From contig WHUZ01000091.1 in the NCBI GenBank assembly GCA_015179045.1, positions 124,001 through 188,000 on the forward strand: a stretch of DNA of 64,000 nt. The letters run 5' to 3'. Under the pieces are notes generated by a model, which worked only from the letters and a program-made list of their open reading frames with translations, made no database searches and was not told the origin of the DNA. Below are positions 1,732-61,799 of this stretch, one piece after another (positions within the stretch are counted from its first letter, which is position 1; the number at the start of each line of letters is the position of its first letter). The translations under genes were made by a program, and so were the position numbers. This stretch comes from Kalaharituber pfeilii. Its lineage: Eukaryota > Ascomycota > Pezizomycetes > Pezizales > Pezizaceae.

Positions 1732-1791
1732 ATTTTTTTGTTTTTTTTGATAATCACGTATCCCCGCTTATCGCTACTCGCTATGGTAGGG
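1732..1791 (-). mobile_element. Ultrashort retroposon, family 2
   Basis: A 60-bp insertion read from the minus strand: a CCCTACCATAGCGAGTAGCG-type hairpin, a linker TACGTGAT and an A-tail, seen here as leading T runs. It is flanked by CTTTATCACTGC (1720-1731) and CTTTATTACTGC (1792-1803), a 12-bp duplication with one mismatch. Confidence 0.8.
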
Positions 1792-8019: not shown

Positions 8020-9910
8020 CTAGCACTCGGTATGACAGCCCCAACTACCGTCCTCCATGGCTAGTGTCGGCCTATTTCGTATCCCAACTTTCGGTCCCTG
8101 AGTCGTTCTTCTTTCGATGTCACAGCCGCTTGTCATAACATTGGGGTTATCGTTTGTTGAATCTGCAGATAGTTCAGCTCCTGGGTCTTGTCTTTCCTCA
8201 GGAGCAGGAAGCTCTGCACGCCTTGCGATGTTGCACTCATCTGAAGAGTTTCCGCTACATGAATTTCGGGGCGGTAATGAAGTCTGGGAAGTAGCTCCCA
8301 CGGCTGGGTTCTCGGAGTTTTCTTGACTGGTGAGATCATTCTGCGCCACTTCTTCGGACGGATTGGCTGACCCAGGAGATTGTGGTGTTACAGAACTCAG
8401 TGCAGTGCCACGGGGGTCGTGAGAGAGACCGTCATCACCACCGCCGTTAGTACTCTCGCGCGTTATCGCAGATGCTTTGAGAAATTCTGGTATCAGCATG
8501 CCTTATACATATGATGTGACGCGGTTTGGAAAGCAATACCTCCAGAGAATGTACCCAATATCTTGAAGCAAACCTCGGTAATTAGTGGAAGCCACGTGAG
8601 TATTGCTGCTATTTGACCCACTCCCCATTCGCTTTGAATATCGGCTGAAGTACCATACTCCCTTAAAAGGTAACGAGACCTATTGATTGTGATCGTGGAC
8701 TGAATGCATAGAAACGGTAGATAAAACCACAATGGAAAGAATGAAATCCGCATTGTCAAATTGTGGTAGCGTGCAGTCGACTCATTTCTCCTAGCTGTAT
8801 GACTTGATTCTTCCCTCTCCTTTGAATGTGTTAATGGCAACAAGCGCAACATAACTCGATAGATTAGTATGACAATGCCGTCACCTAGGAGCAAAAATAT
8901 GAACAAACCCATACCAACAACCGTATTCCAAGTGCAAGGATCGGGAGTCAGTGAAGTCAACCCATACAGAGATAAATATAACACAACAGAAGTTATAGAA
9001 CCTGAAACAGATAGTATACTTATGCTGTAGTTGTAGAACTTTTCAATTCGCTGTCCATAATTTTGCGATAGGGAGTATTTCTTCAACAACAAAGATCCTC
9101 CATCTCTCAACATGCACCCAAAAAGAGCAGAAGTATGTAGAACGGTTTTGCAAGGAAAAGAACTGAGTAAAATAATACCGAAGAGTTCACTATTAATTGT
9201 AAACTGCGACGAGTAACAATTATCAATTATCCTCTCTAAGAAGTAAACTTGTTCTGCTGAAATCATCCCTCCGGCGTAAAGCATAACATACTCAATAATG
9301 ACAACTAGCAAAAGGTAGAATAGGTATAAGGGGAATTTTCTCCAATCTGTGTACATCCTGCCACCTAGGACCAGAGCAAGAAGATTGAATGTTAGTAGAT
9401 CGGCCTGGAGCGGAATTAACAAGCGTAACGTTGCATGTTCATAGAATGAGGCTGGTTGTAAAGTCCTAGCAAATGAGGACATTACCACTGTGAGGATAAT
9501 ATATGCATTTGTCTCGACAAATAGGCGGTGAATATCAATAAACAATTGCCACCGTGTCGATTCTTGGGCTTTTGGAATTCCAGCACCAAAATATGAAATG
9601 AGTGTGAATAATGAGGTTAAAGCGAGCTGGATACAATAGGTAACAAAGAGCTGTGAAGCCGAACGGTAATAGGAATTAGTATTAAAGACGAATACCCACG
9701 GAATTGTAGAGAAGAATAGAATCAACCTACTCCAATGCCAAGCAGGTCTGGATTTCCATTTCCAATCGCAATGTCACAAATTTGGGGGCATTGTTGAAAG
9801 ATTGCCGTTAAATTTGTACTATTGTTTGGCTCTAACAAGAACTCGAGGCTGTGGAAATCTGAACCTGGCGGGAAATGGTAGGGGCAATTTGAACTGTTTG
9901 ATGGCTCCAT
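8020..9910 (-). CDS. Multi-pass membrane protein of unknown function, paralog 1
   Basis: Three exons join in frame: 9910-9731, 9650-8555 and 8486-8020. Intron 1 is 80 bp (GTAGGT donor, TACTAAT branch site, CACAG acceptor) and intron 2 is 68 bp (GTACAT donor, CTGAT branch, CCAG acceptor). The product is 580 residues. The N-terminal 60 residues carry N-glycosylation-type Asn-Ser/Thr sites and Cys residues, ending in the motif NPDLLGIG, and probably face outside. About eight hydrophobic segments follow. The last about 155 residues are polar, Ser/Glu-rich and lack hydrophobic stretches, likely a cytosolic disordered tail. The G-I-G motif followed by a TM segment containing Y-x-Q is shared with the copies at 16.4 and 26.3 kb and, from general knowledge, with many uncharacterised fungal membrane proteins. 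Function unknown; a receptor- or sensor-like role is speculation. Confidence 0.8.
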
Positions 9911-10049
9911 GGACAGAGAGCTCAGATAGACAAGGTCCGCGTTATTATGCGCTAATCTTCGACTCGGTACGTGACGGTTAAAAGCCTGTGACTGTACTTT
10001 GCCGACGGAAGGGGCAGTAATATTGTGGAATCATACACGCTTAAATATT

Positions 10050-10670: not shown

Positions 10671-11270
10671 GATCTCGGGTGGTAGGTAGTAGCCAAGTAG
10701 CCACTTCGACAGTAGAGAAAGAGTGAGTATATGAAGGAATGACTGTATTGACTGTATTGGGCTAAAGTACATATCTATTTCTTGCATGAGTTGCATGTTG
10801 AGGAGCCATCTGCAGGTGGCTTAATTCTTTCTTATCTTCGTTTCACATGTCGTTTACATGGATGGTTGCTATGTTTATCTCGTATATTAATTCTTTCATT
10901 TATTTTTCGGAATTACTTCGGATATCACATTCAGCTGGGATTTGTTTCGAACTCGCATACAGCTTGTTTTACTTCGTCTTTTCTTTACGAAACTGTACAA
11001 GTTTGTTGCCTATATCTACGGCTACCATTTGGGTATAGTCGTCTCGCTTTCTGTGTATATAGTCTGCGGAAACCCGCACCCACTTAATACCATAGAGTCG
11101 CTCAACTCCTCTCCTCGTTACCTTCCTCCGTGCCTCCACTCCATTGCTGCCTCCGTTTGCACCATTATCTTTCTCTATAGCGCTTGCCCCGCTATCCTTA
11201 TTCTTCCGCTACGCATCGTGTTACCCTCTCGTGGGTTACGTTGTTAGAGATCGGCTATCAGTCAGTGATT

Positions 11271-11329
11271 TTTTTTTTTTTTTTTTTTTAATATCATTAC
11301 TCGCTTGCCGCCCTATGGGCTATGGCGAG
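11271..11329 (-). mobile_element. Ultrashort retroposon, family 1
   Basis: A 59-bp insertion: a T run (A-tail of the minus-strand copy), ATATCATTACTCGC, then the hairpin ending GGGCTATGGCGAG. It is flanked by perfect 11-bp duplications AGTCAGTGATT at 11260-11270 and 11330-11340. The perfect duplication and long clean tail suggest a recent insertion. Confidence 0.92.
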
Positions 11330-11372
11330 AGTCAGTGATTGTTTTTGGGTAACTTGACTTAGCTTCACAGTA

Positions 11373-12171
11373 CAGTCTAACCTTGCTATACCGGATGGCG
11401 TCTGATTCGGACAACCGTTCCCCATACAAATTGCCCTTCCTATACCGGACGCTCTAACAATACCTGAACGGACAGAAACCACCAGGCAAGTACCCTATGT
11501 CTCCATACAAATAACATTTGCTATACCGGACACACTAAATACTAATACATCTTAGACTACCCCACTTTACCACTGTTTACCACTCTCTGCCGCTAGGAGG
11601 CTGGAACATTCTTGTAGAGTTTTTGGCGTGAATTGAGAGACTATTAAAGAAACAGTCAGAGTAGCATGGTTTGGCTCTAGTTAATACTTGTATTTTTTTT
11701 TTTTTTTTTATATCATTAATCGCGTGCCGCCCTACGGGCTATGGCGATGTTGTGCTATAATAAAAAGAAAAGTTAACTACACCGACAGAAACTATCCGCC
11801 TAAAAAAAAAAAAAACCCCAATCCTAGCCCAGCCTTAATTACATGTGTTTCCCGCAGTCTCCAATTGTTTTCGCGGGGGGAAATACGCCCAGCCGAATTG
11901 CCTCACCTCCGTCCCCTTTCGGCCTCGTACCGAGACGCCCTTGTATATTTGATGCTCCATCTGTTCTAGCTAGTGAGAGCGATGCAGATTGAACAGACTT
12001 TGATTCAGTTAAGGTTTGCTGAACTTGTTTACTTCCTACTCTGGGAATTTGTATACAAATTTTGCCACCCCCTTTTTACAGCTGCAAAGCATTTTATTCT
12101 ATACTGGAACCTTGCTATACAGGACAAAAAGTGCCGGATTTTTACTCGTCCAGTATAGCAAGGTTAGACTG
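11373..12171. mobile_element. Pogo/Fot1-like MITE
   Basis: A 799-bp element bounded by inverted termini CAGTCTAACCTTGCTATAC and GTATAGCAAGGTTAGACTG, with TA on both outer sides (11371-11372 and 12172-12173), the target duplication expected of Tc1/mariner elements. Inside the ends are repeated CTATACCGGAC(A/G)C motifs typical of pogo-type subterminal repeats. No transposase ORF is present, so it is non-autonomous. A 5'-truncated LINE fragment (11697-11946) has inserted into it. Confidence 0.85.
11697..11946 (-). mobile_element. 5'-truncated LINE fragment with family 1 tail
   Basis: A T run and the family 1 hairpin (here in the ATCGC/GCGAT version) continue into about 180 bp that match the ORF1-proximal part of the copies at 14.8 and 37.7 kb (CGTCCCCTTTCGGCCTCGTACCG). 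The flanking CTTGTAT repeats suggest a short target duplication. It lies inside the pogo-like MITE, so it is the younger insertion. Confidence 0.7.
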
Positions 12172-14309: not shown

Positions 14310-14805
14310 TTTTTTTTTTTTTTTTTTTTTTTGTTCATATCATTAATCGTGTGCCGCCCTTGGGACTATGGCGATGTTTAGTTGCATGAAAACGTAAACA
14401 GGAAAAGGAAAGAAATAAACAGAGAAGGGTGATATTAGACAGAAAAGGGTGACATTAGACATAACTGCTGGCGTCGCGTCTAGCGCTCCATCCATTCCAA
14501 CAATGATCTGATCGGGTCCCCGGCATCTCCGTCCTCTCTTGGTGGTTTGAGTAACGCCTCCCTCCCCCTGGCCATCGTGTTTTCCATACCCGGCAGCTGT
14601 TAAGTACATGATTGGTTGTTTCCTCCTCTTCTCCACACCATCGCCATTCCGGGCCGTCTGTTTTCCCTAACTTGTATTGCCAGTGTCTCAGTCCCTCGCC
14701 CCTCAAGAGGCCAGCCAGTGCCCTACCCCGTGTCCCAGTCTTTGGAGTGGTCTGTCGGTCATGCCTAATCTGTTTCGTTCCTCCGACCTTCGGGCTCTAG
14801 CCTGT
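14310..14805 (-). mobile_element. LINE 3' end with family 1 tail
   Basis: Read on the minus strand, this holds the end of LINE ORF2 (GLRHWQYKLGKTDGPEWRWC, then CGEEEETTNHVLNSC, a CCHC-like motif), a 3' UTR, the family 1 hairpin (ending GGGACTATGGCGAT on the plus strand) and a long A-tail at 14310-14332. It links the ultrashort family 1 copies to their likely source: they carry the same terminal hairpin and linker as this LINE. Its 5' end is truncated or hidden by the next insertion. Confidence 0.8.
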
Positions 14806-14821: not shown

Positions 14822-15600
14822 CTTTTTTTTTTTTTTTTTTTTTTTATATCAATACTCGCAGGCCGCCCAAAGGGCTATGGCGAGGGTTTATTATAACAGA
14901 AAAAGAAAGAAGTCAACATCTGCGTCTAACTAAGTACCCCTACCTACATGTAATGCCCGCGAAACTCCTTCATGGTGCGGGTGACAGGTCCGGTATGTCC
15001 TACTTCCGTCCCCTCTCCGATTCATACCGGTCCCACCTTAGCCAACGTCTCCCGAGCCTCACCCTCCCAGCCTCGGTCTCCTTCTCCAAGTAAACTACCG
15101 CCGAGCTGGTTTTCTTTCCTTCCTCAACCAGCGTGGTCTTCTTCCTCAGCCAGCGAATTCCGGAGATCTTTCCCAATTCCTTATTCGCTGCCTCCAACCA
15201 TTGTCTGACCTTCCCTAGGTCCTTCCGTAGGGCGATCCCGTGTACTACGATGCCGGTTTTAAGTCTGGTGGTGGCATCGGGGTTGGTTGGTGGGGAGGTG
15301 GAGGTGCTCCTGGGGCGGGGAGAGGGACCTTTGCGTGAGGTGACTGCCAGGTGGCGCTTGAAGGCTTCGTCTTGGCTCGGCAGCTTTCCTTTGCCCTTCC
15401 TGCCAGCTTCGGTTAACATCTCGTCTTGGTATTGTAAGAAGGTGCCTATCTTGGCCCCCTTGTCTGCTGAAAGGGTGGAAGCAGGAGAGGGTGGGCAACC
15501 TAGTCGAGGTATGGTTCGCCAGCCTCGATCTGAGCTAGCTGAAGGGCCGGAGGGTACGTTGTGTACCAAGCGTGTACGTAGTGTAGATAGGTAGCTGCTT
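14822..15600 (-). mobile_element. ORF1-only LINE derivative, copy 1
   Basis: Minus strand: an ORF1-like frame (15569-15000, about 189 residues) ends close to the family 1 hairpin and A-tail (T run from 14822). The ORF is Pro/Ser/Thr-rich at first, then has a conserved core: IVVHGIALRKDLG, then SGIRWLRKK and VVYLEKE. The same core occurs in the copy at 37.7 kb (LVIHGVALRRELG, SIRWLRKK, VVYLEE). In an autonomous Tad1-like LINE, ORF1 is followed by a long ORF2. Here only about 140 bp separates the ORF1 stop from the tail, so ORF2 has been skipped. I could not find its target duplication. Confidence 0.7.
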
Positions 15601-15624
15601 TAACCTGACCCGGGTGTATGGGTC

Positions 15625-15665
15625 CCTGCCATAGGCTGGTAGCCTGTATGCGGGGTTACGTGAAC

Positions 15666-15698
<33 letters not shown>
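15625..15698 (+). mobile_element. Retroposon of family 2 with long A-tail
   Basis: The hairpin CCCTGCCATAGGCTGGTAGC with AGCCT pairing and a GCGGGG foot, linker TTACGTGAACC, then about 32 adenines. Family 2 pattern is clear. I see no clean target duplication, so the 5' boundary is approximate. Confidence 0.7.
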
Positions 15699-15699
<1 letters not shown>

Positions 15700-15824
15700 C
15701 CTAAATTGGACAAAGAGGTCTAGGAGAACATGAAACCGCAATCGTGGTAACTGAAAGGCTCAATAGGACACAATTCGAGCTAAGGGTCTCTAGGAAAAGT
15801 TAAATTAGAGCTAACGGGTGCAAT

Positions 15825-15873: not shown

Positions 15874-16374
15874 ACGGGTACAATCTTTGACGTTCTAAAA
15901 GAAATTGACAGTTCGAAAAACGGCAGATACGGTGATGAAGGCTGTTAGGTACCGCCGACAGGACGGCTACAAATAGAAGGGATCGTGCCAACCTAACCAA
16001 CGAATAGGCAACCTCAACCTGCTAATACGAAGCTCGTTCAAGCCCACACCGAACTGTACTTTCGGAGTAGGAGGTTTGGGAAACCTGGCTGCAGGAGACG
16101 TTTTGATAATGGGAGGATTGGGGAAGATGGGTAGGCGAATTTAGGAGGTCTACCTATTATTTACGGCAGTGCTCGAGGTAGTCTGTTTTCTCCGAGCGAA
16201 ATTCCAGAGTGTTATCTCAATAGGAAGAGACGTCCGGAATCCTGCTCTAGAAGAGGGATTGCATTACACCTCCCACCGCTTCAGGGTTCTGCACTAGCAC
16301 GTTGGATGTTTTTCTGTCCAAATTATTGTTTATTTCTGGTTATCATGGCCGAGTCCCATCGATGTAACAACAAA

Positions 16375-18278
16375 CTAGGTATGACTGCCCTCAGGACCTT
16401 CTTCTATGGCTAATGTCGGCCTCTTCCGTATTCCTACTTGCGGCCCCTGAGCCATTCTTGCTTCCTTGCCACAGCCGCTTGACACAACATTGGTGTTTTC
16501 GCTTGTTGATTCTGCGGAAGGTTCTGCTGCCGCATCTTGTCTATTCTCAAGAGTAGCAAGCTCTTCACGCCCTATGATGTTGTCTTCATCTGAAGACTCT
16601 CCGCTACGTAAATTTCTAGGCGGTAATGAATATTGAGCAGCAGCTCCAGCTGCGTGGCTCTCGGAGTGTTCTGAACGGATCGGGTCAGATTGCGCCACTT
16701 CTTCGGACGGATTCGGCGGCCCAGCGGATTGTAGTGTCACAGGGCTCGTTTGCAAGATAAGGGGGTCTTGGAAAACTCCATGAGATCTATTGCTCGTTGC
16801 TATCGTAGATGTTTTGTGGAATTCTACCATTAGATTAGCATGTTATGCTGCATATGAATATGATGTGATAGGAATTGAAACGCAATGCCCGCAGAGAACG
16901 TACGCCATATCTTGATGACTCCCTCGACAATTAGTGGAAGCCATGTAAGTATTGCTGCTGTTTGCCCCACTCCCCATTCACTTTGAGTGTCGGCTGAAGC
17001 ACGATACTCCTTCAGGAGGTAACGATACCTATTGATTCCGACCATGTATAGAATGCTTCGAAATGGTAAATAAAACCATAATGGAAAGGATAAAATCCGC
17101 ATTATCAACTTTGAGTACTGTGGAGTCGACTTATTTACTCTAACCGTGGGAGTTGATTCTTCCGTCTCCTTTGAATGTGTTAGTTGTTTAGGTAACAAGC
17201 GCAACATAAGCAGGGAGAGGACTTTGCAAACACAGTCACCAAAAAAGGAAAACATGACCAAAACTATACCAACAATGAGATGCATCCAATTAGTGAGGAA
17301 CGGAATCTGCACATAAAGGACCAGATATAAAACGCTAGAACATGAAATTGAGAGTATACTCATAGCATAATTGTAGAACTTTCCAATTCGCTGTCTGTAG
17401 TTCTGCGGTCGAGGCAGCGCTGCTTTGAGGAGCGCAGATCCTACAACGGTCCTAAAGCAAAATAACCACAAAACAGCCAACGGGTGTAGATTGCCTGCTC
17501 TAGAAAAACGGTTGCGTGACATGATAGGAAAGATGGAGTCACTACGTAATTGTTGTACAGTGGTATCACGCGTCGACGTCGAATAACAACCATCAATGAT
17601 CGTCTCTAACTGGTCGAATTTCTCAATTGGACGCAACACTGTGGTGTTATATGTAGTGATTTCAAAAATGACAACTAGCAGAAGAAAGAAGAGGTATATG
17701 GAGAATTTTCTCCAATCTGTGTTCTTCCTGCATTCTGGGACCAGAGCGAGAAGATTGACAGTTAATAGATCGCCCTGGACAGGAAGTAGGAGACACAGCA
17801 ATCCACGCTCATAGAGTGAGAGGTTTTGGAAAGCTCTGACAAATGAAGAAATTGCAACTGTGAGGACAATATATGCATTGGTTTCGATAAATAGACGGTG
17901 AATATCAATAAACGTTTGCCACCATCTTGATTCTTGCACTTTCGGAATTCCAGTGCCAAAATATGAAATGAATGCGAATAAAGAGGTTAAAGCGAGCTGG
18001 ATACAATAGGTAGTAAAGAGCTGTCAAAGCCGAACAGCAACAGGAATTAGTACTTAATACGAGTACCCAGGAAATAGGAGACGAGAATAGAATCAACCTA
18101 CGCCAATGCCAAACAGGTCTGGGTTTCCATTGCCAATCGCAATGTCACATACTTGGGGGCATTGTTGAAAGATTGCCGTTAAATCTGTACTATTGTTTGG
18201 TTCCAAGAACTCGAGGCTGAGGAAATCTGCACCTGGCGGGAAATGGTAGGGGCAACTTGAACGGTTTGAGGGTTCCAT
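16375..18278 (-). CDS. Multi-pass membrane protein of unknown function, paralog 2
   Basis: Exons 18278-18102, 18020-16904 and 16823-16375 join in frame and give 580 residues, exactly the same total as paralog 1. Intron positions and phases match paralog 1, with a GTAGGT donor in intron 1 and GTACGT in intron 2. Layout is the same: Asn/Cys-rich external N-terminus ending NPDLFGIG, about eight TM segments, and a disordered polar tail sharing NPSEEVAQ and IRKRPTLAIEE-type motifs with paralog 1. Both copies are open throughout, so both are probably functional or recently so. The duplicated block extends about 140 bp into the 5' flank. Function unknown. Confidence 0.8.
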
Positions 18279-18879
18279 GGACAGAGAGGTTCAAATAGAA
18301 ATGTTCAACGTTCTCATGCACTGAACTTCGACTCAGTATGTAATGGTCAACAGCGTGTGATTTTACTTCGCTGAGGGAGCGAAGAAATTTGGTGGATTCA
18401 TACGTGATTAAGTATTGCATAGTAGAATTTAAAAAGACAATATTCAAAGGTGTGTGGCGAAGACATGTAGAAAAAGCAACTACCATCTCACAGTTCTTGT
18501 GATGAAGTTGGTCATATGAGAACCTTCGCACACTCGATGCTAGTCCAAAATAAGAGAGTATCGAAGAAGCCTGCATACAGCCGAATAAGCATAAACTGAT
18601 AATTGCTTTTTTCGTTGGACCACCCACATGTGTCACAATAGTAGCTAACGACTGTACCCCATTACAATACATTATAGGATAGTTCCAAGGCATGCAGTAA
18701 GAATCAACTGCATGCGTTCGTAGCTGTCACGGATAATCCTTGAGTTGCAGACGGCAAGTCTGTACACATGCATATTGCACTCACACCAATTTACTGACGA
18801 TCATGTTTTCATCGCCTGATGACGTATCACTTAGGAGTTCATGCAGGAGTAAAATTAGGGCAACCGTCCAAACTACAGC

Positions 18880-19953: not shown

Positions 19954-20014
19954 TTTTCTTTTTTTTTTTATCTCACATAACAACCCTGCTTGCAGCTGTT
20001 CGCCATAGCAGGGC
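19954..20014 (-). mobile_element. Ultrashort retroposon, family 2
   Basis: A 61-bp insertion on the minus strand with hairpin foot CCCTGC/GCAGGG, here perfectly paired, inner GCTATGGCGAACAGC, linker TTATGTGAGAT and A-tail. Flanks are TTGTAACGGAGG (19942-19953) and TTGTAATGGAGG (20015-20026), one mismatch in 12. Confidence 0.85.
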
Positions 20015-21540: not shown

Positions 21541-21895
21541 CCCTGGTGTGGGTGGGAGACTAGTGTACTCAGTACATTGTCGTAAATCAGCCCTTATGCG
21601 TGGTTATCGCAATGTCACATCGTGTAGCAGCCCTGCCATGGCGAACAGCTGCAAGCGGGGTTATGTGACAAAAAAAACAAAAAAAAAAAAACATCGTGTA
21701 GCAGATTACGATATTACTACATACGACCTTTAGTTTTTGTGATATGACTTAAACCATTTTATCATGTGATGTTGTGTTTTCGCCTTTTGTTTTTGTTTTC
21801 ATTGCCCGTGTGTAGCCCTTCTGAAGCGTGGCGTAGCATCTTACAGTACCGGTTACCTTGCATCATTTCAGCTTTGTATTCAGAGAATTTTTTTT
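21541..21895. repeat. Dispersed repeat R1, copy c
   Basis: Starts GGTGGGAGACTAGTG and matches copies a and d through CATACGACC, GATATGACTTAA and the CCTTTTGTTTTTGTTTTCATT region. It serves as an empty-site comparison: the family 2 retroposon at 21631-21690 is absent from copy a at the same place. Confidence 0.7.
21631..21690 (+). mobile_element. Ultrashort retroposon, family 2 (best example)
   Basis: Exactly 60 bp: CCCTGCCATGGCGAACAGCT hairpin, foot GCGGGG, linker TTATGTGAC and A-tail. It is flanked by perfect 14-bp duplications ACATCGTGTAGCAG at 21617-21630 and 21691-21704. It sits inside repeat R1. R1 copy a has the uninterrupted sequence (ATGCAGCGTGCGGCAGATTA), so both the boundaries and the insertion event are confirmed. 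Confidence 0.95.
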
Positions 21896-33815: not shown

Positions 33816-34470
33816 ATGGCAAGGAGATACCGAATCGATGAGACTGGGAGATTGATGTTAGAAGGATATGATGGCCTTTGGAAAGCAGTCCCGAACTTGA
33901 GGCAAATTCAATTGATCCTGAAGAAATTCCATGATGACACCTGTGTAAGGCACTATGCAGCAGAGATCACCCACAGAAGAATCCTACAGGCAGGCTATGC
34001 CTGGCTGACAATGATGCGCGACTGTCGCTAATACTGCAAATCCCGCAAGAGATGTCAAAAATGTGCAGATCTGATAGATTTTCCGGTGGAACCACTAAGG
34101 CTGATCATAATGCTGGAGCCTTTTGAGATGATTATAGTAGACTATGCTGGTCCCTTCGAGCCTATGGGAGGTCGTGCATACATTCTTGTTATGATTGACA
34201 ACTTTACAGAGTTTCTAAAACTACTGACCTATCGAATTGCTGATGGCGCAGCTACTGTCCGGCTACTGCAACAAACCTTCTTAAGACATGGTTTCCCTCG
34301 CATCATCCATTCAGACCGGGGTTCGCACTTCTACAATTCTCGCCATAGCCCATTGGGCGGCATGCGAGTACTGATATAAAAAAAAAAAAAAAAAAAAAAA
34401 GCACTTCTACAACTATGAGACTATGGAGTTTGCAAAGGAACATGGCATCAAATGGGTCTTCAAGCCTTAG
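33816..34470 (+). pseudogene. Integrase region of the gypsy element
   Basis: The N-terminal zinc-binding part reads LILKKFHDDTCVRHYAAEIT and a following CXXXXXXC block after a stop (YCKSRKRCQKC). The catalytic core follows: MIIVDYAGPFEPMGGRAYIL with the first Asp and IIHSDRGSHFYN with the second. The ultrashort retroposon at 34337-34400 splits the core directly after SDRGSHFYN, and the frame resumes as YETMEFAKEHGIKWVF. The C-terminal domain is lost. Confidence 0.75.
34337..34400 (+). mobile_element. Ultrashort retroposon, family 1 (inside gypsy integrase)
   Basis: A 64-bp insertion: TTCT, hairpin CGCCATAGCCCATTGGGCGG, foot CATGCGAG, linker TACTGATAT and 23 adenines. It is flanked by perfect 12-bp duplications GCACTTCTACAA at 34325-34336 and 34401-34412. 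Removing the insertion and one duplication restores a continuous integrase reading across the site, so the insertion boundaries are certain. Confidence 0.95.
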
Positions 34471-35949: not shown

Positions 35950-36218
35950 CCGGAATCCCGGGTGTCCAGGAAAGTGATGAACAAATATCGAAGGTATAGT
36001 AACTTTCCACTCCGAACCTTTCTCTTTCTCCTTCAGTTCCTCTGTTGTCAGAATATCTGTTGTATATCAGGGATATGTTGAGACTATGTTGATATTAGAA
36101 ATACCAGCCACTGTATGTTGGAAGTTTGATGGTAGTTGGACCAATATTGGCAGAGTCGCATACCATCTCCAAGAGCATATTTTGCTTATATGGGCATATT
36201 TGATATTAGGGTTGTTAT

Positions 36219-36277
36219 TTTTTTTTTTTTTTTTTTTATTTCATTACTCGCATGCCACCTTATAGGCTATGGCGAGG
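36219..36277 (-). mobile_element. Ultrashort retroposon, family 1
   Basis: A T run of about 20, TTCATTACTCGC, then the hairpin in mutated form (GCCACCTTATAGGCTATGGC). Flanking duplications TTAGGGTTGTTAT are perfect over 13 bp at 36206-36218 and 36278-36290. The TTAGGG in the duplication is target sequence and not a telomere. Confidence 0.93.
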
Positions 36278-37723: not shown

Positions 37724-38379
37724 TTTTTTTTTTTATTTTTTTATTTCATTACTCGCATGCCGCCCTATGGGCTATGGCGAGGGTTTAATTTAACTAAAAC
37801 AAAATCAAAACGAATACGGTCTTAAATACATGATGCCCGCGGTCTTTAGAAGGTGTTGCGGGGAGAGCGGTCAGCATCCTGAATCTTCATCTCCGTCCTC
37901 TTTCAGGCTCATACCGACACGCCTTGAGCCACTTCCCTCCGAGTCGCACCTTGTCCTTGTCTAGGTCTTCCTCCAAGTATACCACTATGGAACTTGTCTT
38001 CTTCCCCTCTCCGACCAAAATGTCCTTTTTCCTTAGCCATCTGATGCTGGTGATCTTTGGCATGTCTTTATTGTCCTCGGACAGCCATCTTCTGACGTTG
38101 CCCAGTTCCCTTCTCAGGGCAACGCCATGTATGACTAGTCCGGATTTGGCTTTCGTCGTCGTCGGGGTCGGCGGGGTAGCCTTTTTGGTGTCTTTTGGCG
38201 GGGTGCTACGGGGTTGTGGCTTTGGGTTGGCTGGGGCTGGTGCCGGAGCCGGGTTCGTGGGTGTGGGGGTGGCTGGAGCTGATGCTGGAGCCGGGGCGGG
38301 TGAATTCGGGACCGGGGAAGGTGTCGTTTTTCCTGTCTTCCTCTTCCTCCTTGTGGGTGTCTTAGCCGGGGGCGGGGGT
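37724..38379 (-). mobile_element. ORF1-only LINE derivative, copy 2
   Basis: A minus-strand insertion of about 656 bp with flanking GGCCAGTGGCTACT repeats (about 37711-37723 and 38381-38393). It encodes a Pro/Ala-rich segment and then the ORF1 core (LVIHGVALRRELG, SIRWLRKK, VVYLEE, ending EPERGRR). The family 1 3' region, hairpin and A-tail follow directly. As in copy 1, ORF1 joins the tail with no ORF2. The clean duplication makes it a genuine transposition product, not a chance deletion after insertion. Confidence 0.85.
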
Positions 38380-39138: not shown

Positions 39139-39195
39139 TCGCCATAGCCCATAGCGGGGCATGCGATGGTGATATTAAAAGAAAAAAAAAAAAAA
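39139..39195 (+). mobile_element. Ultrashort retroposon, family 1
   Basis: A 57-bp insertion: TCGCCATAGCCCATAGCGGG hairpin, foot ATGCGA, linker TGATAT and an A-tail with one G. Duplications CCTCTCCACAAC (39127-39138) and CCTTTCCACAAC (39196-39207) differ at one base. Confidence 0.85.
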
Positions 39196-39570: not shown

Positions 39571-39632
39571 GACTCTTTTTTTTTAATCACATAACCCCGC
39601 TTGCAGCTATTCGCCATGGCAGAGCTCCTGGG
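39571..39632 (-). mobile_element. Retroposon of family 2
   Basis: T run, then AATCACATAACCCCGCTTGC and CAGCTATTCGCCATGGCAG, the minus-strand form of family 2. I see no clean target duplication, so the boundaries are approximate. Confidence 0.7.
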
Positions 39633-40434: not shown

Positions 40435-43400
40435 TCAATCGCTAGCATCCATGTGCGAAGTGGCTCGTCCCCCATGATAGCGATCGACCATTGAGGCCTC
40501 GTGAGCTTGAAGTATGCGGATCACGTCGTCTTTGAACGGTGTGGGTGAACGAGTAGCCAGCTGCAAAGGGGTATGGCCTTCATTATCGCAATCTGTGACG
40601 GAGGCTCCATGTGCCAGTAAGATCTCGACAGCGCTCACACGACCCAGCACAGCAGCTATGTGCAAAAGTGGTTTGATGCAATCATTGCAGCTCCTCATGG
40701 ATGCCCCGTGTGCGAGTAAGATCTTGACAACGCTTGTATTATTCCCCATATGGTACTCCATATTCTGCTAACCAGCATGTGACAATGTCATTGCCAGTGT
40801 CCGTATGACGAAGAATCCAGTCAAGGACATGAGAATATGTGGGGTCATAGTACTGCTCCTCGATGGTCGCCCTTCTACTGTTAGGTTGCAGGAAGCATTG
40901 TGCTGTCACATGAACTGCTGAAAGCAGACGATGTCCAGCCTTGTTGGCTTCATTGGTTTTCGGTGGGTGTTCAAGCAGTGCCTTGACCAGGTCCATATGT
41001 GACTCCATCATTGCAAGGAGTAATACAAGGGCATCTCGATAATGTGTGCTAGAGACTAATGGTTCAGAAATGTTGTGCATCCTGATATACTGCCCAGAAT
41101 ACAGAAGGGCCATCACATGCAGGAGCATGGCATCTAGCAGGGTAATGAATACGTGAGCCCCAGGTCCCAGATATCGGCGGGGAACGATGGATAATCTCCT
41201 CATTAGAAAGAACCCAACTACCTTCTGCATTGTTGCCATTATTTCCAGGTCTTATTTCTGGGCCTGGTGCCTGCCCCTCCCAGATCGTCAAGTCTTTGAA
41301 GTTGTCTCGGAGCTGAGGAAGTCGGATGCTCCTGTCCTGTAGACGTTTAAACTCATCATTGACTGCCTGCTCTTTGCGTTACGTATATTTCTTATTGTCT
41401 GCTAGCGGCTACATGCTCAACTTTACTTACTTTTATCAATCGCTGGATATCAAACCTGACCTTGGTCTCAACATATCCAAGCTGAGGATGAACTGTCACA
41501 ACATCTGTCAGGATCCATGATGCTTTTAACAAATTCAGATACACTTTTTGAGGCAGCTCTGCATCCATATCAGGTGAGCGGAGCTCTGTATGCGCCTTAA
41601 GTAGCCACCATCTACCCGCTTTGATCCATTCTTCGATGCCAATGACTGTCCACCGCTGGGCTACCTCCGCAGCCTTCATGCATTGTTCCGTAAACATGAT
41701 CCGGTCAAATGCATCTGTGCCACCAGCAGACATAACCGGTGGTGCGATCATGGCAGCTTGAGAGGTGCCTATTTGTGCACATGTGATGTAGGTTTTCAGT
41801 TCCTGGATGCCATGGTCTATAGATTGAGTCACGTCCTCAAGGCGTTGCAAAGAGGAACTAGAAGTAGGCATCAGCTGTTTTCGTATTCTGGAACCTTATC
41901 TATAGGAATTGAGGTCATTCTTTCCAGCACACGTTAGGATCAGATTAAGTATCCCATTGTGGTAGGTCAGCTGGCAGGAACCTGTTACCGTCACTTACCT
42001 AGTAGTGCCTGGCGACCGGGATGTGCAGGTTTTCTTGGCACCCCTCCTCCTACACTTCCAAACGTAATATCTCCAGCATCAGGCATGTTAGCAGCATCAT
42101 GTAAAGTGCAGCATATTTAGTAGGCATAGCTGAATATTTGGAGGATATCTGATAGCTGCACTTTTTGTACACCATTTTTCATTCAATTATATACACAAAA
42201 AGTACAGTCTCTACCCCCCTTGCATACCACAGAATAGCATATACCAAGTACTACATGACTGTGCTCAATTATAGCTCTTCGCACTCTCAAGTGGCCATAG
42301 AGGAAGGTTAGCTAACTCATACAATCATAGAATAGGGTTGGTGCAGATTTTTAAGGGCTCAAAAGCAGTAGCCGAAATGTCCGACAGTGCCGGAAATGCC
42401 GAAACTACCAAAATGTCCCTACTGTTACTCGAAGCAGCAATAGTATACATTAGGAATGATAGGATTGATGGGTATGAAACTGCCCTCTTAACTGCAGCGC
42501 TGTATACTATGACTGATAGCGTTTACTGCTAGGAAGACACCCACCCACGAATATCATTGCATGTAGCAGGACTGATAGTACTTACTGCTAGAAAAATGCT
42601 CTCATGAATGCCACAGTATAGCAAGATTACAGGATTGGTAGCTACGATAGGCGTCTACACTGAGGACAGTATTTAGCAGTAGAATTGGCAGGTATGGAAG
42701 CATTCCTATGAGCACTCCTATGGCCATAATAGTATATGCCTAACTGACAGGATTAACAGGTGAGATGAGCTCTTGTGACATCGATATATATCAGAACTGA
42801 TAGGCAGGATAAGGATTACAAAACCACTGCCATACAGGTCTATATAGGTTGATATAGATATTAATATTGATAAGGATTGCATCTTCCTTATAGTAATAGA
42901 ACAAGCTAGTATACTTCTAGACGTCCATTGCCCTACAATGGCTGCATAGGCGTCAGAGTGACTAGATAAGGGAGTATTTATCAGGGTGTTCAGTGTTGAG
43001 CAATGACATTAGGACAGTACACTGTAAGAAGCTGTATAAAGAGGCCAAGGGCACCCATGATACCTATGACAGTAAGGGTGGCAGGAACACTCGGAATGCC
43101 TATGATACTAAGAATTATGGATATCCAGAGTGTGCAAAGCAGCCAGGAAATAGTCTATAGAGTATAACGGCATCCTGCGGTCAAGCTGGTAGCACTTAGC
43201 ATAAATTTTTCCTTGCTAATACAATAAAGTGGTGAAAGAATTAATGTATTATACAATGACCATTCTAGTGCATATTTGCTGTACAAAACTTTATAGACTA
43301 TAGGGAGAGTATGGAAATACTGCTTAGAGTGGTATATGGGTCGCGGTAGGCTATATTATATCTACAATAGGACATATTGGCAGTTTCGGCATTTCCGGCA

Positions 43401-44260
43401 CTTTCGGACATTTCGGCTACTGCTTTTGAGCCCTTAAAAATCTACACCAACCCTATTCTATGATTGTATGAGTTAGCCAACCTTCCTTTATGGCCACTTG
43501 AGAGTGCGAAGAGCCATAATTGAGCACAGTCATGTAGTACTTGGTATATGCTATTCTGTGGTATGCAAGGGGGGTAGAGAACTGTACTTTTTGTGCATAT
43601 AATTGAATGAAAAATGGTGTACGAAAAGTGCGGCAATCAGATGTCCTCCAAATATTCAGCTATGCCTGCTAAATATGCTGCACTTTACATGATGCTGCTA
43701 ACATGCCTAATGCTAGAGATATTACGTTTGGAAATATAGGAGGAGGGGTGCCAAGAAAACCTGCACATCCCGGTCGCCAGGCACTACTAGGTAAGCGACG
43801 GTAGTATGCTATGTTAATAGTTTATGGATATCTAAATGAAGGTTCAAACATGCCTTGCTCCTCAGTGCATCAACCTCTTTGGCATCTAGGGACCACTTGA
43901 ATCTATCCCACCGCTGCTTCAGCTCTGGCCTGGATGTGTTGCCTAGCTTGCGGTGCTTTTGAAAAATATCATTCAATGTATTTAGGGTATGTTCAAGGCT
44001 CTGAAGCATCTCCTTCAGCATGCGCTTTCGGTTCTCCCCTCCTTTCATCAGGATGGATGTGGGATCCTTAACCTCCTCATCAAATACAAACATCATCACA
44101 TGGAGTCACTTTAGTTCATCAACTAGCAATCTGAACTCTTGAGGCGCCCCACGAGAAACACGAATTAGGTCATTGTAAATGGTCAATGCTGTAAGGGCGA
44201 TGCTGGGATCAGTAGGCGAAGGCACGATCGCGGGTGCTACGAGACAGCAGGGACAGAGAG
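40435..44260 (-). pseudogene. Fungal STAND-type/ankyrin gene, interrupted
   Basis: Read on the minus strand. The N-terminal part (about 44260-43809) reads LTIYNDLIRVSRGAPQEF, RLLVDELK, a stop codon, then MMFVFDEEVKDPTSILMKGG and WDRFKWSLDAKEVDALRS, which matches the helical N-terminal region of fungal NLR-like/ankyrin proteins. It continues at 41855-41431 (SSLQRLEDVTQSIDHGIQEL), then a GTAAGT intron and an exon from 41366 (AVNDEFKRLQDRSIRLPQL). Downstream are frame shifts and two ankyrin-type repeats (VVKILLAHGAS, AVEILLAHGASVTDCDNEGH, TPLQLA) at 40761-40435. The gene is dead: one in-frame TGA, frame shifts, and a 1.8-kb element inserted at the intron after KLLT. Intact relatives are thought to act in self/non-self or stress signalling. 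Confidence 0.65.
41988..43801. mobile_element. 1.8-kb element with ~420-bp TIRs
   Basis: TIRs begin CCGTCRCTTACCTAGTAGTG and run about 420 bp (41988 to about 42415; about 43375 to 43801), with TA outside both ends (41986-41987, 43802-43803). They contain TGGCGACCGGGAT and TTTTAAGGGCTCAAAAGC. The 0.95-kb interior has no transposase. It interrupts the STAND/ankyrin gene. The shared CGACCGGGAT stretch relates it loosely to the element at 22.3-24.1 kb. Confidence 0.85.
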
Positions 44261-44347: not shown

Positions 44348-44383
44348 TTTTTTTTTTTTTTTTTTTTTATATCATTGATCGCT
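44348..44383 (-). mobile_element. 36-bp retroposon insertion, extreme truncation
   Basis: Only a T run of about 20 plus ATATCATTGATCGCT, the last 15 or so bases of the family 1 tail. It lies between perfect 11-bp duplications GACGAGAGAGA at 44337-44347 and 44384-44394. Reverse transcription stopped within the 3' foot of the hairpin. Confidence 0.9.
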
Positions 44384-46356: not shown

Positions 46357-46437
46357 TCTTCAGTAGTATAGTGGTTAGTATTCCCGCCTGTCATTGACTG
46401 TTCGCGGGCGACCGGGGTTCAATTCCCCGCTGAAGAG
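46357..46437 (+). tRNA. tRNA-Asp(GUC) with 9-nt intron
   Basis: Acceptor stem TCTTCAG pairs with CTGAAGA. A D-arm containing AGTATAGTGGTTAGTAT follows, then anticodon stem CCCGC/GCGGG and T-arm CCGGGGTTCAATTCCCCG. The loop reads CTGTCA, then TTGACTGTT, then C. Removing the 9-nt TTGACTGTT after position 37 leaves a normal seven-base loop with anticodon GTC. The gene is followed by GATTTTTTTT, a Pol III terminator. It appears intact. Confidence 0.92.
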
Positions 46438-46630: not shown

Positions 46631-46694
46631 TAAAATCGCCGTAGCCGTGGTGCGGCACTCGATTAATGATAAAAAAAAAGAAAAAAAAAAAAAG
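46631..46694 (+). mobile_element. Retroposon of family 1, diverged
   Basis: ATCGCCGTAGCCGTGGTGCG hairpin, foot GGCACTCGAT, linker TAATGAT and an A-tail with one G. The stem foot pairs ATCG with CGAT. No clear target duplication. Confidence 0.7.
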
Positions 46695-49640: not shown

Positions 49641-49645
49641 TTATT

Positions 49646-49755
49646 GGCTCAACTGGGAATTGAACCCAGATCCCCCACCTCATACCTCAGCCCTGCTTTC
49701 ACTTCACAGGATGTAGCCTTGTCTAGTAGGTGTCTTACCATTAGACCACCGAACC
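49646..49755 (-). tRNA. tRNA-like gene with long insert, isotype uncertain
   Basis: On the minus strand, acceptor GGTTCGG can pair with TTGAGCC using G-T pairs. A D-arm GGTCTAATGGTAAGAC and a perfect T-arm CTGGGTTCAATTCCCAG are present, and an oligo-T stretch follows. The 110-nt length requires an intron or a large variable region. The candidate anticodon stem CACCT/AGGTG pairs perfectly but does not put a T at position 33. It could be an intron-containing gene or a pseudogene. Confidence 0.5.
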
Positions 49756-50313: not shown

Positions 50314-51215
50314 CAATGAATCCAACAGGCCAGGCCGGCCGACCAGGCCGCCTGGCCTGGCCTGACAGGCCGTGATCTGCATTGGACTGAAACCGCCTGG
50401 ACCGGTCCAGGCCGGTATTCTCAGTGGCCTGGACCGGCCTGGACCGGCCTGGACCGGCCTGATCCACATGAATCAGGTCAACCAGGCCAGTCCAGGCCAA
50501 TCAGGCCGGTTCAGGCCAATCAGGCCGGTTCAGGCCAATCAGGCCGGTTCAGGCCAATCAGGCCGGTTCAGGCCAATTAAACGAATCACTCCACAGCTAT
50601 CCAGCTGAATTGAGGCCAGCATTTACCAGATTGTTTGAGTATTTAGATGAGTAGAATCTCCCGTATGTCTAGAATTTTAAACAGCAGCGGTCTACGACTT
50701 TTGTCAAGTATGTATCACACTTTGTATTCAAGTATATATACTAAGAAATAATTTAGAAATGATGGACCTTCCAGATAATACAACAGACTGGACCCAATTC
50801 TTCGATGATGATACCTGATGCGCAACTGTCAATTACTGATAGTGGAAATATCCAGGATTATTAAAATCTAATTCACCTGGGTTAAATTCCAAAATCGCTT
50901 GAATTTACGTAAATGGCCTGGTCGGCCTGGACTGGCCTGAATGGCCTGAACCGGCCTGATTGGCCTGGACCGGCCTGAATGGCCTGAACCGGCCTGAATG
51001 GCCTGAATGGCCTGAACCGGCCTGAATGGCCTGAACCGGCCTGATTGGCCTGAACCGGCCTGATTGGCCTGATTGTTTCAGGCCGCCTGGGCCGGTCCAG
51101 GCGGCCCTCACGGCCTGGCCTGATTGTTCAGGCCAGGCCAGGCCCAGAATTTCACGGTCCAGGCCAGTCCAGGCCTCCGGTTGGCCTGGCCTGGCCTGGC
51201 CTGTTGGATTCATTG
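50314..51215. mobile_element. hAT-like element made of GGCCTG minisatellites
   Basis: A 902-bp element with termini CAATGAATCCAACAGGCC and the exact inverse GGCCTGTTGGATTCATTG, flanked by perfect 8-bp duplications AGCATGGC (50306-50313, 51216-51223), the hAT hallmark. Each end continues into about 270-300 bp of tandem GGCCTG-type units: AATCAGGCCGGTTCAGGCC on the left and the inverse on the right. About 330 bp of AT-rich unique sequence lies between. No transposase ORF. Confidence 0.88.
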
Positions 51216-61734: not shown

Positions 61735-61799
61735 TTTCCCTGCCGTAGGCTGGTAGCCTGTGTGCGGGGCTACTTGACCCAAAAAAAAACAAAAAAAAA
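61735..61799 (+). mobile_element. Ultrashort retroposon, family 2
   Basis: CCCTGCCGTAGGCTGGTAGC hairpin with inner AGGCT/AGCCT stem, foot GTGCGGGG, linker CTACTTGACC and A-tail with one C. Candidate duplications GACAACATCTGC (61723-61734) and GACAATGTCCGC (61800-61811) match at 9 of 12 positions, so the copy would be old. Confidence 0.7.

What the first reader, a model, noticed from the sequence alone, without database searches (positions are those of the whole stretch)
34337..34400. Ultrashort retroposons: a LINE-tail hairpin plus poly(A) that moves as a unit of about 60 bp
Family 1 copies at 347, 11271, 34337, 36219 and 39139 are 57-64 bp including tail, far shorter than ordinary SINEs, and all have 11-13 bp target duplications. 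All five begin at the 5' foot of one hairpin (within about 0-4 nt). Random 5' truncation of a LINE would give scattered ends, so the uniform start calls for a mechanism. Either a discrete tiny RNA is mobilised by the LINE machinery, or reverse transcription always stops at the stable hairpin. Both would be unusual.
Basis: partly seen in the sequence, partly recalled or inferred. Interest (0 to 1): 0.92.

Follow-up and report, generated by a model that had tools for sequence, protein, structure and literature searches.

The report
Tiny hairpin retroposons in desert truffle
A desert truffle genome carries many jumping-DNA copies only about 40 letters long plus a run of A's, cut off at the foot of one RNA hairpin, and one subfamily appears to spread as this tiny unit in its own right.

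Summary
Confirmed and extended. The window lies in a 78-Mb fungal genome, very probably Kalaharituber pfeilii. The family-1 hairpin has 5,769 sites. Of 64 copies read with flanks, 16 are ultrashort: a target duplication (TSD) and a start within 3 nt of the hairpin foot (shuffled flanks: 0.2). Other starts with a TSD lie 21 to about 1,400 nt upstream. A second LINE family with a different hairpin ends at its own foot (11 of 23 copies). 'RT always stops' is wrong: long copies abound. One family-2 subtype has 516 exact copies; 507 begin with a G absent from the LINE, preceded by mixed bases. None of 24 listed copies is joined to the LINE end; of 11 fetched, 10 are ultrashort with TSD and A-tail. 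So hairpin plus A-tail moves as a unit. Best model: LINE machinery copies a discrete RNA that ends at the hairpin foot; what makes that end (nuclease, promoter, or RT release instead) is not shown.

The parts
34337..34400 (+). Ultrashort family-1 retroposon: hairpin CTCGC-CATA-GCCC-ATT-GGGC-GGCAT-GCGAG, TACTGATAT, A-tail; 64 bp
34325..34336 (.). Target duplication, left copy GCACTTCTACAA (inside what reads by eye like a Ty3-type pol gene; no search made)
34401..34412 (.). Target duplication, right copy GCACTTCTACAA
347..407 (+). Ultrashort family-1 copy, 61 bp, TSD 12 bp (1 mismatch), A-U foot subtype
11270..11330 (-). Ultrashort family-1 copy, 61 bp, TSD 11 bp
36218..36277 (-). Ultrashort family-1 copy, 60 bp, TSD 13 bp
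39139..39195 (+). Ultrashort family-1 copy, 57 bp, TSD 12 bp (1 mismatch)
44348..44383 (-). Even shorter family-1 insert: A, then the 3' strand of the outer stem (GCGATCAATGATAT) and A-tail; TSD TCTCTCTCGTC
14827..14884 (-). Family-1 hairpin tail of a long copy; ORF1-like frame ends 120 nt upstream
14318..14375 (-). Family-1 hairpin tail (A-U foot subtype) of a long copy; frame resembling an ORF2 C-terminus (by eye) ends 84 nt upstream
37724..37781 (-). Family-1 hairpin tail of a long copy (TSD 15 bp, 600 nt upstream); ORF1-like frame ends 110 nt upstream
11691..11748 (-). Family-1 hairpin with LINE-like upstream; no convincing TSD found
46635..46692 (+). Divergent family-1 hairpin with A-tail; no TSD found
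21631..21691 (+). Ultrashort family-2 copy (CCCTGCCATGGCGAACAGCTGCAAGCGGGGTTATGTGA + A-tail), 14-bp TSD
19954..20014 (-). Ultrashort family-2 copy, 13-bp TSD (1 mismatch), starts at G
1733..1791 (-). Older ultrashort family-2 copy, 15-bp TSD with 2 mismatches
15624..15698 (+). Family-2 hairpin, AGGCT-GGT-AGCCT inner-stem subtype, A-tail; no convincing TSD found
61738..61799 (+). Family-2 hairpin, AGGCT inner-stem subtype, A-tail; no convincing TSD found
39576..39624 (-). Family-2 hairpin preceded by LINE-like GGCCCAGGAG

Best explanation
These are LINE-mobilised mini-retroposons whose whole body is the LINE's 3'-terminal recognition hairpin plus a poly(A) tail. LINE reverse transcriptase primes on the A-tail at a nicked target and copies through the hairpin. 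Most ultrashort templates end there because the RNA itself ends at the first paired base of the hairpin, so copying runs off the template; TSDs form as in any LINE insertion. From LINE transcripts this yields a steady by-product. In family 2 at least one line of such units has become independent: it carries its own diagnostic bases, including the first base, and has multiplied to hundreds of identical copies, probably from one or a few strongly transcribed source copies. SHOWN by sequence: TSDs, A-tails, 5' ends clustered at the foot in two hairpin families, covariation in family 1, the LINE link, and an almost purely ultrashort subtype. INFERRED: LINE protein as the machinery, RNA end rather than RT release as the cause, nuclease trimming or cleavage at the foot as the source of that end, and a master copy.
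For: 5' ends at the foot: 16 of 64 family-1 copies against a shuffled mean of 0.2, and 15 of 27 family-2 copies against 0.08 (4 of those 15 are L093-L096, picked as one subtype). LINE link: the family-2 hairpin begins 124 nt after the TAG that closes the 1,248-aa frame holding the EN and RT domains at C26; in L054 a family-1 hairpin lies 58 nt after a frame with a sub-cutoff RNase H match. Hairpin: C-G/A-U covariation at the foot (40 and 11 of 54 rows) and C-G/U-A in the inner stem (46 and 6 of 54); 97.5% of cells paired, slid controls at most 47%. LINE-linked subtype: 155 of 166 copies not joined to GGGA still start with the LINE's A (326 copies, 315 with A, 160 joined), so the end is sharp. 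Independent subtype: 516 exact copies, 507 with G at that place, where the LINE has A; next base mixed, 387 of 507 not G and of the first 100 of these listed T 59, C 29, A 12; 0 of 24 listed CTAC copies exactly joined to CAGGGA against 35 of 76 of other subtypes (p=1e-5); of 11 CTAC copies fetched, 10 have TSD plus A-tail at the foot (read by eye). An end on the 5' side of the hairpin is not where a hairpin would block an RT coming from the 3' side (reasoning).
Against: No RNA data. RT release at the foot, once the bound recognition hairpin has been copied, would leave the same ends. Six family-1 insertions start inside the hairpin, three of them within one base of the 3' strand of the outer stem, so ends are not confined to one point and some RT drop-off within the hairpin is likely. 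T is over-represented at the base before the G (about 45% of the 507, extrapolated from 100 listed), and L093 and L102 carry an extra T before the G, so some templates extend at least one base further. One fetched copy (L100) has flanking repeats but no A-tail. A 39-nt element has no room for the usual SINE promoter (recalled). Family-2 covariation could not be shown: 14 rows, no two-sided change. Predicted folding energies are only moderately better than shuffles (z -1.2 to -2.2). In family 1 the tail variants of ultrashort and other copies overlap, so independence is shown for family 2 only.
Confidence: 0.55

Rival explanations
1. The reverse transcriptase lets go at the foot. The LINE protein holds its recognition hairpin while it starts; when the last bound base has been copied it must switch to free elongation, and it often fails, leaving a 40-nt insert. 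No tiny RNA is needed.
For: Starts inside the hairpin exist (6 cases with TSD) and among the 38 starts with TSD score of at least 9 none lies 5-20 nt upstream of the foot, as expected for a failed early phase followed by processive copying. Locus L024 joins an ORF1-type LINE sequence directly to the hairpin foot inside one outer TSD pair with 11 of 12 bases alike, as when RT leaves one template at the foot and jumps to another. Jump sites near predicted hairpins are described for the MGL LINE of Magnaporthe (PMC2104539, section 4 part 1 and section 9 read).
Against: The independent family-2 subtype shows no LINE-joined copy among 24 listed and no long copy among 11 fetched; under this rival its source RNA must be long, yet about half of the copies of a LINE-linked subtype are long (160 of 326).
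Confidence: 0.27
2. A dedicated small-RNA gene: a promoter next to one family-2 hairpin starts transcription at the G, making a tiny SINE RNA.
For: 507 of 516 exact copies have the G, which the LINE lacks at that place, and the preceding base is mixed.
Against: A LINE-linked subtype has the same end with A as first base, so a foot-dependent process exists already; some copies carry an extra T. No source gene was sought beyond the fetched flanks.
Confidence: 0.13
3. Ordinary random 5' truncation of LINE copies, with the peak a sampling accident.
For: LINE copies with scattered 5' ends exist (16 of 28 starts at 21-1,376 nt).
Against: 12 of 28 starts lie within 6 nt (P about 5e-19); the same holds in a hairpin family of different sequence; near one-base sharpness over hundreds of copies.
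Confidence: 0.02
4. Remnants of longer SINEs or retropseudogenes with a tRNA or other small-RNA head sharing the LINE tail.
For: Fungal SINEs that share a LINE tail are known (Mg-SINE/MGL; sections of PMC2104539 and passages of PMC3747384).
Against: No Rfam family reaches its cut-off in the window outside two tRNA genes, and none in the stretches of L092 and window 34250-34450 searched loosely. Upstream of long copies the open frames that I could recognise are LINE or ORF1-like; many copies gave no recognisable frame.
Confidence: 0.03

Closest known systems
SINEs that share a 3' tail with a LINE (UnaSINE1/UnaL2 in eel; Mg-SINE/MGL in Magnaporthe)
   Same: Non-autonomous, LINE-derived 3' end, TSDs, LINE partner in the same genome; hairpin tail as in the eel pair (passages of PMC5135761 and PMC3747384; sections of PMC2104539)
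   Different: No small-RNA head: the element is only the tail hairpin plus A-run, about 39 nt in the independent family-2 subtype
5'-truncated LINE copies
   Same: LINE-linked ultrashort copies carry the LINE's own 3' bases
   Different: 5' ends cluster at the hairpin foot; the independent subtype has bases (G first, CTAC, GTCA) not seen on the LINE-joined copies listed
MINE chimeras and template-switch hot spots of the MGL LINE, Magnaporthe grisea
   Same: A fungal LINE with preferred template-leaving sites, predicted hairpins beside them; locus L024 here looks like a jump at the foot
   Different: MGL parts are 230-5461 nt and fused to another RNA (PMC2104539, section 9); the ultrashort inserts here are hairpin alone
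3'-truncated snRNA pseudogenes mobilised by L1
   Same: Truncation points follow RNA secondary structure (single-stranded segments; passages of PMC4476161)
   Different: Those are 3' truncations; here the 5' end is set by structure and the A-tail is present

Membership tests
SINE | Non-autonomous, dispersed, TSDs, LINE-like 3' tail | tested here: met
SINE | Head from a Pol III small RNA (tRNA, 7SL, 5S) with internal promoter (definition recalled) | tested here: not met
   0-4 nt between TSD and hairpin in the foot copies; no Rfam match at cut-off in the copies tested
SINE | Own subfamily propagating separately from the LINE | tested here: met
   one family-2 subtype: 516 exact copies, 507 with G first, 0 of 24 listed CTAC copies LINE-joined; not shown for family 1
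5'-truncated LINE copy | 3' sequence identical to a LINE of the genome | tested here: inconclusive
   met for the CCAAGTGCTAC subtype (160 of 326 joined); no exact LINE-joined match among 24 listed CTAC copies
5'-truncated LINE copy | Scattered 5' ends without a peak | tested here: not met
   peak at the foot, with a scattered remainder
Stringent-type LINE 3' stem-loop | Conserved hairpin at the end of the LINE 3' UTR with an asymmetric internal loop | tested here: met
   family 1 by covariation, family 2 by position and predicted fold only
Stringent-type LINE 3' stem-loop | LINE protein binds and requires the hairpin | not testable with these tools
   needs protein and RNA assays
Template-switch chimera (MINE type) | 5' part from another transcript inside one TSD pair | tested here: not met
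   foot copies have only 0-4 nt between TSD and hairpin; one possible chimera, L024
Tailless retropseudogene | No A-tail | tested here: not met
   A-tails in 10 of 11 fetched CTAC copies, not in L100; the scans required an A-run, so tailless copies would have been missed there

The most novel reading that the evidence does not exclude
A free-standing retroposon of 39 nt plus A-tail, whose 5' boundary is set by RNA structure and not by a promoter. Any transcript passing through a copy could be trimmed to the hairpin foot and re-inserted without carrying neighbouring DNA. It would be the smallest SINE-like unit that I know of, with a body that is nothing but the handle the LINE enzyme grips.
Probability: 0.35. 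Interest if true: 0.85.

Novelty: new variant of a known kind. Interest (0 to 1): 0.7.

Why it matters
If the LINE handle alone is enough to make a mobile unit, the minimal requirements for trans-mobilisation are a hairpin, an A-tail and a defined RNA 5' end. Two LINE families in one genome with the same behaviour give a natural experiment on how LINE RT starts, runs off or lets go, with hundreds of identical copies to read. It also suggests that repeat annotation with length cut-offs would miss very many recent insertions (inference). The step that makes the 5' end is open but testable with small-RNA reads.

Tried and rejected
Random truncation as sole cause: rejected. Known RNA family or ribozyme: no Rfam match above cut-off in what was searched. 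Different hairpin variants in ultrashort and other family-1 copies: tail types overlap, so no pure ultrashort family-1 subtype was shown. Escape from RIP through small size: dropped; dinucleotide indices of L061-L090 pooled show no clear RIP. A published report of such elements: not seen in the listings of ten searches of a library that lacks most subscription journals; one search returned no paper and mostly unrelated ones, so this is weak. Papers seen: PMC2104539 outline, section 4 part 1 and section 9; passages by term search of PMC5135761, PMC4476161, PMC3747384, PMC7550596; all others as listings only. Recalled, from no call: SINE promoter layout, LINE clade names, order of the fungus. 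LINE clade of the two families: not determined. TSD matches far upstream with score 9-10 may partly be chance.

Full report
WHERE. The window is contig C352:124001-188000 of a 78.03-Mb assembly in 360 contigs. All 11 hits of an element protein are named Kalaharituber pfeilii, and one source contig length, 1,541,133, equals that of C2; so the host is very probably this desert truffle.

OBSERVATION. Genome-wide the family-1 core has 5,769 sites with up to 3 mismatches, the reversed control none (the tool heads its answers with a warning that counts of repeats may be lower bounds and ends them by calling the counts whole). In the window and L001-L091, 64 distinct copies with an A-run were found, repeats of one context in overlapping loci being removed by the script. 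Sixteen start at -1 to +4 nt from the CGCC of the stem with a TSD score of at least 8; one more starts 21 nt upstream; swapping flanks between copies gives a mean of 0.2 (max 2 of 200). With TSD score of at least 11 there are 28 starts: 12 at the foot, 16 between 21 and 1,376 nt; with score of at least 9, 14 of 38, and 26 of the 64 have no TSD at that score. So the truth is a sharp peak plus a broad tail. The share of 16 in 64 is a lower bound because old TSDs decay; scaled to 5,769 it suggests about 1,400 ultrashort family-1 copies, a rough figure, since 30 of the loci were chosen as the first exact matches.

SECOND FAMILY. Another hairpin, [A/G]CCCTGC-CAT-GGC-N5-GCT-RCAA-GCGGGGT followed by YAYGTGA and A's (an AGGCT-stem subtype also occurs), behaves the same way. 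Of 23 copies not chosen by subtype, 11 have a TSD with the start at -1 to +4; one has a TSD 278 nt upstream and the others no convincing TSD. In one search, 27 of 28 rows were scored (by elimination L092 was dropped for its short right flank) and 15 were at the foot, four of them the fetched L093-L096; null mean 0.08.

LINE LINK. At C26 a frame of 1,248 aa holds the endonuclease and RT domains; read on into L091 it closes at 15615-15617, and the family-2 hairpin begins at 15741. For family 1, L054 has a frame with a weak RNase H match (E=2e-4, below cut-off) ending 58 nt before the hairpin, and many long copies carry an ORF1-like frame ending about 105-120 nt before it. That second type looks like a non-autonomous half-LINE.

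STRUCTURE. Family 1 is predicted to fold as two stems around an internal loop. Over 54 distinct rows 97.5% of cells pair, slid versions at most 47%, shuffles at most 94.9%; foot pair C-G 40, A-U 11; inner pair C-G 46, U-A 6; 17 two-sided changes against a shuffled mean of 3.6, max 9. Family 2: 96.4% of cells paired in 14 rows, slid at most 50%, but no two-sided change. Predicted energies are only moderately better than shuffles (z -1.2 to -2.2).

SHARP END AND AN INDEPENDENT SUBTYPE. In the LINE-linked subtype CCAAGTGCTAC there are 326 exact copies: 160 joined to GGGA, 315 with A before CCC, 5 with G. Hence 155 of 166 not-joined copies keep the A that can pair at the foot. In the subtype GAACAGCTAC..GTCA there are 516 exact copies, 507 with G at that place; one base further out the 507 are mixed: 120 G, 387 other, and of the first 100 of these listed T 59, C 29, A 12. 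Of the 100 exact sites listed on C1-C2, 0 of 24 with CTAC are exactly joined to CAGGGA against 35 of 76 of the rest. Eleven CTAC copies were fetched, five from the listing and six chosen for T before the G; ten carry GTCA, L095 carries GTTA. Ten of the eleven (nine of the ten GTCA copies) are ultrashort with A-tail and direct repeats, read by eye; L100 has direct repeats but no A-tail. No long copy in 11 gives an upper 95% bound of 24%. This subtype therefore moves mainly as the short unit.

ENDS INSIDE THE HAIRPIN. Six family-1 insertions with TSD start inside it: three within one base of the 3' strand of the outer stem (L010, L041, window 44383), one at the 3' strand of the inner stem (L012), two elsewhere (L022, L033). 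Ends thus tend to lie where a paired strand begins. Both RNA trimming to the next stem and RT leaving at stem boundaries would do this.

MECHANISM. A hairpin should halt an RT at its 3' side, yet the common end is on the 5' side, after the hairpin has been copied. A template that ends there explains this simply, and explains the almost purely ultrashort subtype. RT release when its bound handle has been consumed is the main rival; L024, where an ORF1-type sequence joins the foot directly inside one TSD pair, fits both. I put 0.55 on the run-off model, 0.27 on RT release, 0.13 on a dedicated gene.

PLACE AMONG KNOWN THINGS. It works like a tail-sharing SINE but fails the head and promoter feature, and it is not a plain truncated LINE. 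I call it a new variant of a known kind.

Noticed in passing
L008, L011, L017, L026 (starts 156-167 nt before the hairpin); L019 126, L024 (minus) 132: Six family-1 long-copy starts cluster at 126-167 nt before the hairpin; four lie close together in the ORF1-like C-terminus. Possibly a second structure-set end.
   Followed up: partly
L020:1-1392, L021, L010, L009, window 14882-, 37779-: Many long family-1 copies show only an ORF1-like frame ending like RLGGKWLR..YE..RGRK, like half-LINEs; the 11 homologs found for the L020 frame are all named Kalaharituber.
   Followed up: partly
L024:508-1560: ORF1-type LINE sequence joined directly to the hairpin foot within one outer TSD pair: a template jump or internal deletion.
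   Followed up: partly
L100 (C2:213046-213190): Family-2 hairpin with flanking direct repeats but no A-tail.
   Followed up: no
window 50473-51100: Arrays of GGCCTGAA-type tandem repeats in both orientations.
   Followed up: no
window 8025-9920 and 16374-18288: Two diverged copies of a region with a membrane-protein-like frame (by eye), about 8.35 kb apart.
   Followed up: no
window 41986-43803: Long inverted repeat (95-97% complementary) with an inner gap of about 1 kb.
   Followed up: no
window 46357-46437, 49645-49755: Two tRNA matches longer than the model, suggesting introns.
   Followed up: no
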